Source: a virus. From it: a stretch of DNA of 57,503 bases. The notes under the pieces were generated by a model that saw only the letters and a list, made by a program, of their open reading frames with translations, ran no database searches and was not told the DNA's origin. A program made the translations under genes and the position numbers. This document shows, in pieces, positions 5,942 to 26,694 of this stretch (position 1 is its first letter; each line of letters starts with the position of its first letter). The stretch covers positions 1 through 57,503 of the IMG/VR virus record IMGVR_UViG_3300022221_000009. One strand, given 5' to 3'.

Positions 5942-6133
5942 CCTGTTTTTCTCGTCAATCAACAGTCGATTGATGAGGTCTGTCTCTGTCACATCATCCC
6001 CTAATTTGAGGCAGATTTTTAAAGCCTCGTTGGCCTCAGGCGAGAGCCTCCAGGATTTGCGGGCGCCGCCCGCGTGTTTGAGCGCGGCGATAGAGTCGTT
6101 TACTCGCTGCGTGGCTGTGCGTGGTTTAGTCAT
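5933..6133 (-). CDS. Small DNA-binding-like protein, 66 residues
   Basis: Basic N-terminus (TKPRTATQRV) followed by a compact segment with a Lys-Ser-Trp-Arg-Leu strand and two helices (SPEANEALKIC and TETDLINRLLI), the pattern of ribbon-helix-helix or short plasmid-type repressors. It overlaps the KorA/DUF1456-like gene upstream by 4 bp, so the two are co-translated. I infer a co-regulator; no exact family is recognised. Its stop codon lies within the GTAGGCGACTA operator-like sequence. Confidence 0.6.
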   Translation of the reverse strand: MTKPRTATQRVNDSIAALKHAGGARKSWRLSPEANEALKICLKLGDDVTETDLINRLLIDEKNRLL

Positions 6134-6639
6134 TTAGTTGGCTCCAGCGAGCGAAACGCCACACGCTCCATTTTGCGCACCTCGTCGGCCATTTCATCCG
6201 GCACGCAGACAGTGACACATTGACACTCGCGCGGACAGCCCACAATGCCGCGATGTTCGCGCAGGATTTTGTAACACCAGGTCCGCACGTCCTCGCGTTT
6301 TTTGCCTGTGATGTTAGCAACGTGTTTGTGACTGTGCCCCTCCACCAGCACCAGCCGCGCCGCCTCCAGGCTGGCGGGCGCGATCTTGGTGTAGCTGGCG
6401 GCAAGGTCAAATTGCTCGGGGGTCATGACTCGATATTCAAACATACCCTTAATAAATCCATTCAAGATTTCATCCGGCATTTCGGCCGCTCTGTCATTAT
6501 CTAAATCTGTTCGCCAGCCTTTAATTTTTGAATTCGTTGCAACAATGCCGCCGAGTTTGAATATCTCAATCGTTAAGTCTCTATCTCTACCGACGCCCGT
6601 CAAGTGCAGCAATTTTTTAAATATCTCGTTGTTGTTCAT
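6130..6639 (-). CDS. DUF1456-TrfB/KorA-like fusion regulator
   Basis: A 169-residue protein with two parts. Residues 1-68 resemble one repeat of DUF1456 (YehS family), starting MNNNEIFKKL and ending near ILNGFIKGMF. Residues 72-130 resemble the TrfB/KorA helix-turn-helix of plasmid global regulators: MTPEQFDLAAS, then AARLVLVEGHSHKHVANITGK. The C-terminus has a CxxxC pair (PRECQC). KorA-type proteins bind short palindromes at their own promoters; the GTAGTCGCCTAC element at 7425-7436 and its copy at 5926 are candidates here. The fusion is unusual and the DUF1456 part may mediate dimerisation, which is inference. Confidence 0.65.
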   Translation of the reverse strand: MNNNEIFKKLLHLTGVGRDRDLTIEIFKLGGIVATNSKIKGWRTDLDNDRAAEMPDEILNGFIKGMFEYRVMTPEQFDLAASYTKIAPASLEAARLVLVEGHSHKHVANITGKKREDVRTWCYKILREHRGIVGCPRECQCVTVCVPDEMADEVRKMERVAFRSLEPTK

Positions 6640-6665
6640 TATCTGACCCCGCTTACTTATTAGAA

Positions 6666-6682
6666 GCTGCCTATGCGGCAGC
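6666..6682 (-). other. Small GCTGCC/GGCAGC hairpin between module genes
   Basis: A 6-bp GC-rich stem with a 5-base loop lies after the 80-residue gene and before the KorA-like gene. A sister hairpin is at 7014-7028. Neither has a T-run, so they look more like RNA stability or processing elements than terminators. Confidence 0.5.
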
Positions 6683-6712: not shown

Positions 6713-6955
6713 TTACAAAAGATTCTTTATTTCAAGAACATACCTGATCAAATAATGCTCTAAAGTTTCGCCGTTTTCGTCTTCTTTATCGTCCGGACAA
6801 CGAAACCATACCGCATTAACTGTTTTATACTCTACATCTTCTTCTTTTGACGCCCAATTGAATAAAACTCTTTTGAAACCCTGGTTGTTAAATTCTGCAC
6901 ATTCAAGCATAAATGAATGTGCATCGCTTTCGTTTTTAAAATTTAAGACTGGCAT
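6713..6955 (-). CDS. Hypothetical 80-residue protein with pseudoknot leader
   Basis: The start was set at the ATG at 6955, which follows a GGAG site and gives the protein beginning MPVLNF; the longer upstream reading crosses the structured leader. The product is a mixed alpha/beta acidic protein without known motif. Its leader carries the first RNA pseudoknot (6976-7005), ending 16 bases before the ribosome site, so translation control is likely. It belongs to the module transcribed from about 7415. Confidence 0.65.
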   Translation of the reverse strand: MPVLNFKNESDAHSFMLECAEFNNQGFKRVLFNWASKEEDVEYKTVNAVWFRCPDDKEDENGETLEHYLIRYVLEIKNLL

Positions 6956-6975
6956 TATAAGTTTCTCCGTTTCAG

Positions 6976-7005
6976 TCCCGGCATGACCCCGGCCGGGAAT
7001 CGGGG
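6976..7005 (-). promoter_or_regulatory. H-type RNA pseudoknot 1 in a leader
   Basis: In the leftward RNA the order is CCCCG, AU, UCCCGGC, CGGGG, UCAU, GCCGGGA. Stem 1 pairs CCCCG with CGGGG (5 bp) and stem 2 pairs UCCCGGC with GCCGGGA (7 bp); they interleave, with a 2-base and a 4-base crossing loop, the geometry of classical H-type pseudoknots. A ribosome site follows. Pseudoknot 2 keeps the same design with a compensated base-pair change. Confidence 0.7.
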
Positions 7006-7013
7006 TTTTTAAG

Positions 7014-7028
7014 CTGCCTGCACGGCAG
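7014..7028 (-). other. Small CTGCC/GGCAG hairpin upstream of pseudoknot 1
   Basis: A 5-bp stem with 5-base loop, sharing its stem sequence with the hairpin at 6666-6682. It directly precedes pseudoknot 1 in the leftward RNA, separated by an A-rich linker. Confidence 0.5.
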
Positions 7029-7057
7029 TAAATTTGTTTATTGATACAACACACTAA

Positions 7058-7345
7058 TTAGCTCACATGCACAAAATAAATAGTTTCTCGTGTGAAATCC
7101 TCTCTAACTTCGGATGTGTCGTTATAATCTTGATCTATGTCATCGCCAGATCCGATGTGGTCAGAATAGCCCACGCCATGAATTTCCAGCATTACCTCGT
7201 TTTGTATATCATCAAAACACTGAGCAATAAAATCGCTGTTTTCAAAACCGCTGCCCGCGCCGTGCGGTACAAGCGGTGCTTTAATTGCGGAATCAAAGTA
7301 TTCTTGACACCGCTCAACCATTAACTCTTTTGCATTCGTGCTCAT
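7058..7345 (-). CDS. Hypothetical acidic 95-residue protein with pseudoknot leader
   Basis: First gene of the separately promoted module. The start at 7345 follows a strong AGGAG. The protein is acidic in its C-terminal half (runs of Asp/Glu around residues 65-85) and has no recognisable family; acidic small phage proteins are often DNA mimics or inhibitors, but nothing specific supports that here. The whole leader from the predicted transcript start near 7415 to the ribosome site is occupied by a hairpin and pseudoknot 2. Confidence 0.65.
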   Translation of the reverse strand: MSTNAKELMVERCQEYFDSAIKAPLVPHGAGSGFENSDFIAQCFDDIQNEVMLEIHGVGYSDHIGSGDDIDQDYNDTSEVREDFTRETIYFVHVS

Positions 7346-7363
7346 TAATGTATCTCCTATCGG

Positions 7364-7394
7364 TCCCAGCGTCAGCCCCGGCTGGGAATCGGGG
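7364..7394 (-). promoter_or_regulatory. H-type RNA pseudoknot 2 in a leader
   Basis: In the leftward RNA: CCCCG, AU, UCCCAGC, CGGGG, CUGAC, GCUGGGA, then CCGAUAGGAG and the start. Stem 1 is identical to pseudoknot 1; stem 2 has an A-U pair where pseudoknot 1 has G-C, changed on both strands. The last loop is one base longer. An upstream GAGCT/AGCTC hairpin (7395-7413) fills the rest of the leader. Confidence 0.7.
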
Positions 7395-7421
7395 GAGCTA
7401 AATATCTCAGCTCATTGGTAC

Positions 7422-7450
7422 AGTGTAGTCGCCTACGGTCTATTTGTCAA
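7422..7450 (-). promoter_or_regulatory. Sigma70-type promoter with overlapping operator
   Basis: Read leftward: TTGACA (7450-7445), 17-base spacer, TACACT (7427-7422), an excellent sigma70 match. The near-palindrome GTAGTCGCCTAC at 7425-7436 overlaps the -10 and is repeated at the other end of the module, so a module-encoded KorA-like repressor is a natural candidate binder. The upstream 16-mer at 7453-7468 is the inverted partner of 5893-5908. Confidence 0.7.
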
Positions 7451-7999: not shown

Positions 8000-8278
8000 T
8001 TAAAGAGTCTCTTTCTGGATAGCTATACCAAACAAAGCAATCAACTTATTCCTGACCTCAACCCAACCATCAGGGATATCACTCTCCCCGGTTTCATCAT
8101 ATTTAGCGCGTCGATTAACATCGTACAGAATTTCATAGGCATTATTCAGTTCGGCAAAAGTGTCCTTATCGCCACCGCGATCCGGGTGACACCGCATCGC
8201 CAGCCGTTTGTAGGCCGTCTTGATTTCTGCTTGAGTTGCATCCTTAGACACACCCAATACTTCATACGGATTTTGCAT
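8000..8278 (-). CDS. J-domain (DnaJ-like) protein
   Basis: A 92-residue protein that is little more than a J-domain: NPYEVLGV at residues 3-10, helix II, the HPD signature at residues 31-33 followed by RGG, and helix III with [14 protein letters not shown] is required to stimulate Hsp70 (DnaK) ATPase, so the protein can recruit host DnaK, for instance to remodel replication complexes. The ATG at 8278 has an AGGAG site; longer readings do not. A second J-domain protein is encoded at 24417. Confidence 0.88.
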
Positions 8279-8681
8279 TTTGTTTTTTCTCCTGTGTATA
8301 AAGCCAGACATCGATCCAGCGTAGGCCGTCTTTGACTTTGGCTCTAAATGTTGATTTTGATATTCCAAACCACGTGAGGTTATTAGATACACCTTCTAAT
8401 CCGATATAGTTTGCAATCAGGATTTGTGCTAATTCCTTGTAACGAGGATGGTCGCTCATTTCATGCATAGCTTTTTCTATTTGTTCAGCATCATCATTGA
8501 CAGGTGGTAACTTCTGGCCTTTGCTGCGAATCATAACGCCGCCCATTTCGATTAATTCATATTCCAGCGTTTTAGATGCATATCCGTTTAATTCTCCATC
8601 CTCACGCCGACAGGCCCAGTTCGCCCACATCTTAACCAACATATCGATGTATTGGAGCCGCTCGTCATCGTACTGGCGCAT
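8262..8681 (-). CDS. Q-like antitermination protein candidate
   Basis: A 139-residue protein, with start ATG 8681 preceded by GAGG at 5 bases (GTG 8687 is the longer option). It has an N-terminal helical part with WANWACRR and a C-terminal segment (about residues 85-125) resembling the helix-turn-helix of phage antiterminator Q-like/ArpU-like proteins: [17 protein letters not shown] and [19 protein letters not shown]. Position at the end of the early operon, upstream of the late genes and in the same direction, matches lambda Q. Several intrinsic terminators in the late operon would be its targets. Confidence 0.55.
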
Positions 8682-8958
8682 GCTCACCTCTTTTGGATTT
8701 TATCGCTTTATTCAAAATAAGGCGGCAACCATATATCTCTGCTTTTTCCAGATAACTGTAATCGGACTGCTTTGCTGCATAACGCAAATGCCTGGAACTA
8801 TGGCCGTCAGCATAATCAGTGGGTGGTAATACATCAGCTAGTTCATATAGCAAAATAGTAGCCTCGCATTCGTCCAGGATATAAACTAAATCACTGTCCT
8901 TGACGCCACGGTTACGCTGTTCTTCGATATTTTCAAATATGGCTTCCATAACATTCAT
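8665..8958 (-). CDS. Hypothetical 97-residue protein
   Basis: Start placed at ATG 8958, with AAGGAG 8 bases upstream; a GTG at 8967 is possible. Acidic N-terminal helix followed by a basic C-terminus, overlapping neighbours on both sides, as expected of an operon gene. No recognised family. Confidence 0.6.
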   Translation of the reverse strand: MNVMEAIFENIEEQRNRGVKDSDLVYILDECEATILLYELADVLPPTDYADGHSSRHLRYAAKQSDYSYLEKAEIYGCRLILNKAIKSKRGEHAPVR

Positions 8959-14850: not shown

Positions 14851-15306
14851 ATGAATCGGGTATTGGAAAAACTGGGTATTGAAAGAATGGAATATTGGGA
14901 GCGGGTTCAGGCCGCGATGGAGTACGCTGGCCTGGGACCAACTAAGGTAGCCGCGATTGTCCGGACATTTCCGGACTGCGAAACTGTCAGCCAGCAAACA
15001 ATCTCACAGATTGGCACTGAGCGGCGCAGAAGCTCTAAATATACCGTGCAGATTGCGATCGCCACCGGCACACGCCCAGAATGGCTTGCAGCAGAGCGTG
15101 GTGACATGATTGATATAGAAACAGCCAAAGATCCCAAGCTGGAAAGTATTGCCCGAGACATGGTTAAAGACGCCCTGACAGCCAGAAAAATTAAATTAGC
15201 CAAAGAAACCATCGACCAACTGGTCGACCTGGCTTACGACGATGTATCCAAAGGCCAACTAACGAAAGCCAAGGTATATAAGCTAATCAAGCTTGTGGCC
15301 GCATGA
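14851..15306 (+). CDS. CI-like repressor without peptidase domain
   Basis: A 151-residue protein with an N-terminal lambda-repressor-type helix-turn-helix (about residues 15-85): ERVQAAMEYAGLGPTKVAAI, VSQQTISQIGT, and the ATGTRPEWLAAERGDM end typical of CI proteins. The C-terminal 60 residues are helical and lack the Ser/Lys self-cleaving peptidase domain, so induction would not follow the RecA/LexA-like cleavage path; an anti-repressor is one alternative. It is transcribed rightward between the early promoters, as expected of an immunity repressor. Confidence 0.8.
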   Translation: MNRVLEKLGIERMEYWERVQAAMEYAGLGPTKVAAIVRTFPDCETVSQQTISQIGTERRRSSKYTVQIAIATGTRPEWLAAERGDMIDIETAKDPKLESIARDMVKDALTARKIKLAKETIDQLVDLAYDDVSKGQLTKAKVYKLIKLVAA

Positions 15307-25314: not shown

Positions 25315-26694
25315 ATGCCAGAACTAACCATCAGCCAATACCAGGGAGTCCTGCGCGAAGCAGGCAAACTGGTACCATCTGCCCGAACGATTAAGCGGGA
25401 GATCGCGTCTGGCCGACTGGGGGGCTACAAGAAACCGGGTCCAACTGGGCGATATGTTGTTGATCCTGATCGCCCGATCTCGGATACTACCCAACCAGAG
25501 GGAATGGGAATGGGTGGAAATCGACTACGGATCCATGATGGGTTGCCGCCTAACTTATATAAGTATAAGAAGAGCGATACTTGGTATTTTAGGTACAAAA
25601 TACCGGAACATATTAAAAATATTCCGGAAAATGAACGCTGGCAACCTTTAGGATCAAACGAATCAAAGGCCATCGATGCGGCCAATCAATTTAACCAGAA
25701 GTTTGGTAAAGGGTCTGATTTAGTGGCCCAGGTATACGCACGTCTGGACTCTATTGATCGCCATTTCGGGAGATATGTACAGAAGTTTCTGACGCAGATC
25801 CTCCCCGCTCGACGTGTTGGTAAGCGTAAAGAGCCTATGAGTCCGAACACTATTACTGAATACACCCGAATTTGTAATGACTTTCTATCGATCTGGAATG
25901 AAAAATACTTTCCGGAAATTACCCAGGCCATCATAGCTGAATACCTGAATAAGCAGGTATCTGCAGCAGTTTATAACAAGCACCGTACTGTTTTAGGGTT
26001 AATTTGGAAATATGCGATCAGCGATGGATTGATTGAAGATAAAGTTAATTTACCATTAGCTATTGTGAAAAGGGATGGAGAAAAGACAAAACGTCACCGA
26101 CTTACATTGGAAGGCTACCAAGCAATATTTGAACATGCTTCCTTTGCTGTTCAATCAGCCATGGAGTTATCGATCAATTGTATTCAAAGGCGATCTGATA
26201 TTCGGATATGGAAATTTGATGATACATTGGATAACGGCATGGTTCGTCGAATTGTTTCAAAAACAAAATCACGAGGAATGGAAGCCTATATAATGATTCC
26301 GATCACGCTTCCTTTGATCCATTCTGAACGAGGATGTAAAACACTCAAAGAATTAATTAATAGCTGTCGTGATAATGTGCCCTCACCTTATCTGGTTCAC
26401 CATAAGCCATACCGTCGAAAGCTATCTAAACAGAAAGACCACTGGACACAATTAAGCAAAGAAGAAATATCAAATGGCTTTGCTGATGCCAGAGAGAGCA
26501 GTGCGTTTTATCAAAAACTACCACCGGAAGAACGTCCCACATTACATGAATGTATTGCCCTTGGTGAACATCTTATGGGAAATGCAGGCTATGATGAAAA
26601 GTGGATACAGCTGCTCCGAGGTCATCAAAAAATTGAGACAACCCGACTTTACCTGGAGGACCATGAATGGACAGTGATACCGATGCCATGTTAA
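25315..26694 (+). CDS. int: Tyrosine-recombinase integrase with unusual active site
   Basis: A 459-residue protein. An excisionase-like or MerR-like helix lies at 18-40, an arm/core-binding SAM-like domain at about 135-230 and the catalytic domain at 250-450. Catalytic Arg I is in CIQRRSDI (292-293), Lys near 317 (SKTKSRG), the second His in RGHQ (H437) and the nucleophile Tyr446 in TRLYLE. The usual H-x-x-R box reads HECI at 411-414, so the second catalytic Arg is Ile. attP with tRNA-Pro sequence follows directly. Confidence 0.9.
   Translation: MPELTISQYQGVLREAGKLVPSARTIKREIASGRLGGYKKPGPTGRYVVDPDRPISDTTQPEGMGMGGNRLRIHDGLPPNLYKYKKSDTWYFRYKIPEHIKNIPENERWQPLGSNESKAIDAANQFNQKFGKGSDLVAQVYARLDSIDRHFGRYVQKFLTQILPARRVGKRKEPMSPNTITEYTRICNDFLSIWNEKYFPEITQAIIAEYLNKQVSAAVYNKHRTVLGLIWKYAISDGLIEDKVNLPLAIVKRDGEKTKRHRLTLEGYQAIFEHASFAVQSAMELSINCIQRRSDIRIWKFDDTLDNGMVRRIVSKTKSRGMEAYIMIPITLPLIHSERGCKTLKELINSCRDNVPSPYLVHHKPYRRKLSKQKDHWTQLSKEEISNGFADARESSAFYQKLPPEERPTLHECIALGEHLMGNAGYDEKWIQLLRGHQKIETTRLYLEDHEWTVIPMPC

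What the first reader, a model, noticed from the sequence alone, without database searches (positions are those of the whole stretch)
6976..7394. Two covarying H-type RNA pseudoknots upstream of ribosome sites
Two leaders 390 bp apart share the order CCCCG-AU-(7-base arm)-CGGGG-(4-5 base loop)-(7-base arm), giving interleaved stems of 5 and 7 bp with classical loop lengths. Stem 2 reads UCCCGGC/GCCGGGA in one and UCCCAGC/GCUGGGA in the other: a compensatory change on both strands. Each ends 6-16 bases before a Shine-Dalgarno sequence and is preceded by a small hairpin. I know no phage element of this sequence. It could be an autoregulatory protein site, a metabolite-sensing element or a translation enhancer.
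Basis: partly seen in the sequence, partly recalled or inferred. Interest (0 to 1): 0.8.

Follow-up and report, generated by a model that had tools for sequence, protein, structure and literature searches.

The report
Duplicated pseudoknot leaders beside CRISPR-repeat mimics
A bacterial virus carries the same small knotted RNA shape just before the ribosome sites of two neighbouring small genes, in a gene cluster that also holds two imitation CRISPR repeats, so the knots probably tune the making of two small, possibly anti-CRISPR, proteins.

Summary
On the minus strand, PK A (7005..6976) and PK B (7394..7364) each form a complete 5 bp + 7 bp H-type pseudoknot. They are the only two loci of that kind in the window; shuffles give 0.3. 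One S2 pair is changed on both sides (G-C to A-U), and the last loop differs in length (4 or 5 nt). Similarity between the leaders is confined to a PK + Shine-Dalgarno cassette ending 20 and 18 nt before the start codons.

A second repeat-like hairpin precedes the next gene, which encodes a DUF1456 + KorA-type regulator. The cluster reads promoter - hairpin/PK B - 95 aa - repeat/PK A - 80 aa - repeat - regulator. It resembles an acr-racr-aca locus, though neither small protein matches a known anti-CRISPR.

Best explanation: paired pseudoknot translational control sites, working like the T4 gene 32 operator and read by a protein, most economically the operon's own regulator. No homologue was found in IMG/VR or GTDB patterns, so covariation rests on one base pair and function is inferred.

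The parts
6976..7005 (-). Pseudoknot A: S1 CCCCG/CGGGG, L1 AU, S2 UCCCGGC/GCCGGGA, L3 UCAU
   Evidence: direct reading; only two such loci in the window; pair counts
7364..7394 (-). Pseudoknot B: S1 CCCCG/CGGGG, L1 AU, S2 UCCCAGC/GCUGGGA, L3 CUGAC
   Evidence: 19-nt core repeat with 1 difference
7006..7033 (-). Solitary type I-F CRISPR repeat (SRU A), AUUUACUGCCGUGCAGGCAGCUUAAAAA, abutting pseudoknot A
   Evidence: Rfam CRISPR-DR4 36.7 bits, gathering 35; 24/28 identity to GTTCACTGCCGTACAGGCAGCTTAGAAA
6660..6681 (-). Second I-F repeat-like hairpin (SRU C), CUGCCGCAUAGGCAGCUUCUAA, before the regulator gene
   Evidence: exact match to CTGCCGNNNAGGCAGCTTNNAA; CRISPR-DR4 22.4 bits, below gathering
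7395..7413 (-). Hairpin GAGCU-9-AGCUC directly before pseudoknot B; not a CRISPR repeat
7422..7450 (-). Sigma-70-like promoter TTGACA-17-TACACT; the predicted start, about 7415, puts the hairpin and PK B at the 5' end of the mRNA
   Evidence: 10 of 12 matches; the number of such sites in the region is not above shuffles
7058..7345 (-). ORF2, 95 aa, pI 4.15, no family; GGAG at 7357..7354
6713..6955 (-). ORF1, 80 aa, pI 4.7, no family; GGAG at 6968..6965
6130..6639 (-). Regulator, 169 aa: DUF1456 N-terminus + KorA/TrfB helix-turn-helix; Aca-like position at the end of the small-gene cluster
   Evidence: Pfam KORA 3e-10, DUF1456 2.2e-5; ArdK and KorA matches in PDB

Best explanation
The two elements are duplicated 5'-UTR H-type pseudoknots that act at the RNA level on translation initiation of two small phage genes. 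Each is a cassette of pseudoknot, 5-7 nt, then Shine-Dalgarno. The folded knot ends about 18-20 nt before AUG, so it leaves the ribosome site free by itself and most likely serves as a docking site for a protein that then blocks (or stimulates) initiation, as the T4 gene 32 pseudoknot does. The most economical candidate reader is the operon's own DUF1456-KorA regulator, which would make this a pseudoknot counterpart of the RNA-binding Aca proteins. The same transcript carries two solitary type I-F CRISPR-repeat hairpins, so the operon is most likely an anti-CRISPR locus combining RNA mimics with small, possibly anti-CRISPR, proteins. Shown by sequence: the pseudoknot pairing, the duplication confined to PK + SD, the I-F repeat identity, the gene order. 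Inferred: folding in vivo, protein binding, identity of the binder, anti-CRISPR function.
For: Only two such pseudoknots in 57.5 kb, both immediately before an SD. Similarity is limited to PK + SD while upstream and coding flanks are unrelated. 12/12 pairs kept, with a compensated S2 change and a free L3 length. Pseudoknot favoured over the nested fold by about 6-7 kcal/mol in a rough model. A promoter directly upstream puts hairpin + PK B at the mRNA 5' end. KorA/DUF1456 regulator two genes downstream. I-F repeats at A and C: both exact for the 17 specified core bases, shuffle expectation for up to 3 mismatches 0.14. Two other phage records carry single I-F repeats with the same wording, TTTACTGCCG...AGGCAGCTTAAAAA. 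Published: racr genes cluster and can be co-transcribed with acr genes (PMC10651486); a ~28-nt pseudoknot 5' of the ribosome site is the gp32 operator (PMC535899).
Against: No third homologue: the only other record, L002, is the same virus at 100% identity around the leaders. Covariation is one base pair. Nothing shows that the regulator binds RNA; the leader of its own gene lacks the pseudoknot, which is unexpected for autoregulation. ORF1 and ORF2 match no known anti-CRISPR. The host and its CRISPR type are unknown. The energy estimate is crude.
Confidence: 0.45

Rival explanations
1. The pseudoknots are passive 5' caps: stable folds that protect the small-gene mRNAs from decay or keep the ribosome site open. 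PK B guards the primary 5' end and PK A guards the end left when host Cas6f cuts the adjacent I-F repeat (predicted product 5'-CUUAAAAA-PK-SD).
For: PK B lies at about +22 of the predicted transcript, and PK A starts 8 nt after the predicted Cas6f cut, inferred from the I-F repeat architecture. RacrIF1 is cut by Cas6f and its inhibitory part lies upstream of the cut, so the downstream half is free to be an mRNA.
Against: A passive cap needs no sequence conservation, yet 18 of 19 core bases are kept between copies with unrelated flanks.
Confidence: 0.25
2. The 19-bp core is a DNA operator (interleaved inverted repeats) for a transcriptional repressor such as the KorA-type protein, and the RNA pseudoknot is incidental.
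For: KorA and ArdK are DNA-binding repressors; site B lies just downstream of a promoter; the CCCCG-N9-CGGGG spacing is identical in both copies.
Against: The second dyad has different spacing (9 and 10), acceptable for an RNA loop but awkward for a dimeric HTH. Site A has no promoter found by the scan. The constant tie to the SD (5-7 nt) is an RNA-level feature. No KorA-operator-like palindrome lies at either site.
Confidence: 0.15
3. Translation enhancer or standby site read by the ribosome (for example through protein S1), with no regulator.
For: Position 18-20 nt before AUG, outside the expected 30S footprint; a 5'-end pseudoknot is essential for standby translation of tisB (title and abstract of PMC7708055).
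Against: Nothing specific here; the SDs are already good (GGAG), so the need is unclear.
Confidence: 0.12
4. Metabolite-sensing riboswitch.
For: Small H-type pseudoknots beside an SD occur in riboswitches (general knowledge).
Against: No Rfam riboswitch match at the thresholds used; no metabolic gene downstream; S2 and L3 vary between copies.
Confidence: 0.03

Closest known systems
T4/RB69 gene 32 translational operator (pseudoknot, autogenous repression by gp32)
   Same: Phage mRNA; compact ~28-30 nt H-type pseudoknot 5' of the ribosome site; proposed protein docking
   Different: No ssDNA-binding protein gene recognised here; one knot before each of two unrelated small genes; knot closer to the SD, with no UUAAA/UAAA spreading tract seen
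Aca2 control of acrIF8-aca2 mRNA (Birkholz et al. 2024, Nature 631:670; only the reference seen, rest from own knowledge)
   Same: Phage operon of small genes ending in an HTH regulator; RNA structures at the ribosome site; type I-F setting
   Different: Aca2 reads stem-loops, here pseudoknots; the regulator is KorA/DUF1456, not Aca2; RNA binding not shown
RacrIF1-type RNA anti-CRISPRs (solitary repeat units)
   Same: Solitary intergenic I-F repeat hairpin, near small genes in a phage, intact Cas6f-type stem and loop
   Different: Two copies inside one operon, one fused to a pseudoknot leader; no terminator after the repeat; expression and inhibition untested

Membership tests
Type I-F CRISPR repeat / Racr-type solitary repeat unit (element 7006-7033) | Sequence and structure match to a type I-F repeat | tested here: met
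   CRISPR-DR4 36.7 bits, above gathering; 24/28 identity
Type I-F CRISPR repeat / Racr-type solitary repeat unit (element 7006-7033) | Solitary and intergenic, not part of an array | tested here: met
   no other repeat within 300 nt; only one further exact core, 347 nt away; both lie between the ORFs as called from their SD-preceded ATGs
Type I-F CRISPR repeat / Racr-type solitary repeat unit (element 7006-7033) | Small RNA that binds Cas6f and Cas7f and inhibits immunity | not testable with these tools
   needs expression and interference assays
Phage pseudoknot translational operator (gp32 kind) | H-type pseudoknot 5' of the ribosome site of the regulated gene | tested here: met
   (sequence level)
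Phage pseudoknot translational operator (gp32 kind) | Cognate protein binds the pseudoknot and represses translation | not testable with these tools
   no binding data; ORF1, ORF2 and regulator show no ssDNA-binding family in Pfam or PHROGs
Aca (anti-CRISPR-associated) regulator | HTH protein encoded with acr genes | tested here: inconclusive
   KorA HTH protein ends the small-gene cluster, but no gene matches a known Acr
Known Rfam cis-regulatory element | Match above gathering score over the pseudoknot | tested here: not met
   only CRISPR-DR4 passes; nothing for the pseudoknots

The most novel reading that the evidence does not exclude
A two-layer RNA counter-defence operon: Racr-type CRISPR repeats are built into mRNA leaders so that host Cas6f itself cuts the phage transcript, and the adjacent pseudoknot caps and controls the freed small-gene mRNA. 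Anti-CRISPR protein output would then be coupled to the presence of the host's type I-F machinery.
Probability: 0.12. Interest if true: 0.85.

Novelty: new variant of a known kind. Interest (0 to 1): 0.5.

Why it matters
If right, it is a pseudoknot-based translational control shared by two small genes in a probable anti-CRISPR locus, next to RNA mimics of the host's CRISPR repeats. That would extend RNA-level control of anti-CRISPR genes to a new RNA fold and a new regulator family, and it nominates two orphan proteins (80 and 95 aa) and a KorA/DUF1456 protein for anti-CRISPR and Aca testing.

Tried and rejected
Homologue searches for the pseudoknot: three IMG/VR patterns and one GTDB pattern gave only L002, which is the same virus. 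The other hits fail S1 or S2 complementarity, have other loop and stem geometry, or lie in unrelated contexts. The CCCCGATTCCGTGCCGGGG group (L003, L005-L008) has no matching 7-bp S2 and is a different element.

Relatives of ORF1, ORF2 and the regulator: none beyond L002 in viral contigs, and no convincing match in phage records. TerL relatives L027 and L028 carry no I-F hairpin.

The pseudoknot as another CRISPR repeat (CRISPR-DR18, 20.2 bits, gathering 50, E 1.2): rejected as chance. A plus-strand terminator reading of copy A (CGGGG followed by TTTTT): rejected because copy B lacks the T run and no plus-strand gene is apparent there.

Single-sequence structure models: ORF1 pLDDT 62, regulator pLDDT 52, usable only for the KorA domain. 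Genome-wide searches centred on Gammaproteobacteria could not be set up.

Full report
What is there. The window is a 57.5 kb virus record with an integrase-like protein (my reading of the 25315..26694 ORF) and a repressor-like gene (14851..15306). The genes around the finding run on the minus strand. Reading that strand, a sigma-70-like promoter TTGACA-17-TACACT (7450..7422) is followed within a few bases by a hairpin GAGCU-9-AGCUC, pseudoknot B, GGAG and the ATG of ORF2 (95 aa, 7345..7058). After ORF2 come a hairpin, pseudoknot A, GGAG and the ATG of ORF1 (80 aa, 6955..6713). Then another hairpin precedes a 169-aa protein with DUF1456 and KorA/TrfB domains (6639..6130; Pfam 2.2e-5 and 3e-10; KorA and R388 ArdK in PDB). 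Upstream of the promoter lies a gene with weak similarity to Q-like antiterminators (phrog_79, 1.3e-5), and downstream come terminase and further minus-strand genes.

The hairpin attached to copy A is a type I-F CRISPR repeat: Rfam CRISPR-DR4 at 36.7 bits (gathering 35), 24 of 28 bases identical to a typical repeat. A second hairpin with the same stem, loop rule and CTT flank lies before the regulator gene (exact core; 22.4 bits, below gathering). They are the only two exact cores in the window. In IMG/VR the pattern also finds two records, L030 and L032, with a single I-F repeat of the same wording (TTTACTGCCG...AGGCAGCTTAAAAA) directly followed by a CCCC...GGGG-TTTT terminator; other hits are true arrays. 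This is the organisation of the RNA anti-CRISPRs (Racr) described by Camara-Wilpert et al. (PMC10651486), which cluster with acr genes and can be co-transcribed with them. In the window the repeat is followed by a pseudoknot and a gene instead of a terminator.

How it most likely works. Pseudoknot B has no CRISPR repeat, so the knots are not part of the repeat mimic; they travel with the ribosome sites. Because they end outside the expected 30S footprint, they do not hide the SD by themselves. Sequence-level conservation of stems and the AU loop points to recognition by a protein. The best-known phage precedent is the ~28-nt pseudoknot upstream of T4/RB69 gene 32, the nucleation site for autogenous repression (PMC535899). 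The HTH regulator at the end of the cluster is the most economical reader, by analogy with the RNA- and DNA-binding HTH protein Aca2 (Birkholz et al. 2024; paper not held, reference seen, content from my own knowledge). Binding is untested, and the regulator's own leader lacks a knot, which weakens strict autoregulation. The main rival is a passive cap protecting the 5' ends, including an end made by Cas6f cutting the neighbouring repeat. A DNA operator is less likely because the second dyad changes spacing and the cassette is tied to the SD.

Limits. No third copy of the pseudoknot was found by pattern in IMG/VR or GTDB genomes. L002 is the same virus. ORF1, ORF2 and the regulator have no close relatives outside it, and the small proteins match no known anti-CRISPR model. 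The host is unknown. Pattern searches miss diverged sequence, so absence is only absence at that sensitivity.

Verdict. The structure is real at sequence level and more than chance. The kind of element (phage pseudoknot translational site) is known, the duplicated form inside a probable anti-CRISPR operon with I-F repeat mimics is a new variant, and its function is inferred.

Noticed in passing
7006-7033 and 6660-6681 (minus): Two type I-F CRISPR-repeat hairpins in one phage operon (candidate RNA anti-CRISPRs), 347 nt apart.
   Followed up: yes
L030:2150 (minus) and L032:12069 (plus): Two other phage or prophage records carry a single I-F repeat with CTTAAAAA handle, directly followed by a terminator hairpin and next to small convergent ORFs: further Racr candidates.
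   Followed up: partly
L029, L033, L031: IMG/VR records that contain full type I-F CRISPR arrays (10-15 repeats), either phage-encoded or host sequence at record ends.
   Followed up: no
6130-6639 (minus); L002 1936-2492: Fusion of DUF1456 with a KorA/TrfB helix-turn-helix. In L002 the sequence breaks at the domain junction (two BLAST segments), reading as two separate ORFs.
   Followed up: partly
8262-8687 (minus): Q-like antiterminator/PA0613-family similarity just upstream of the leader promoter, suggesting that the cluster could head a late transcript.
   Followed up: no
L003, L005-L008: A recurring CCCCGATTCCGTGCCGGGG-gtttaccgacgggcac element beside an ATGAAATACTTGACGCTGG... ORF in several viral contigs; unrelated to the window's pseudoknots.
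   Followed up: no
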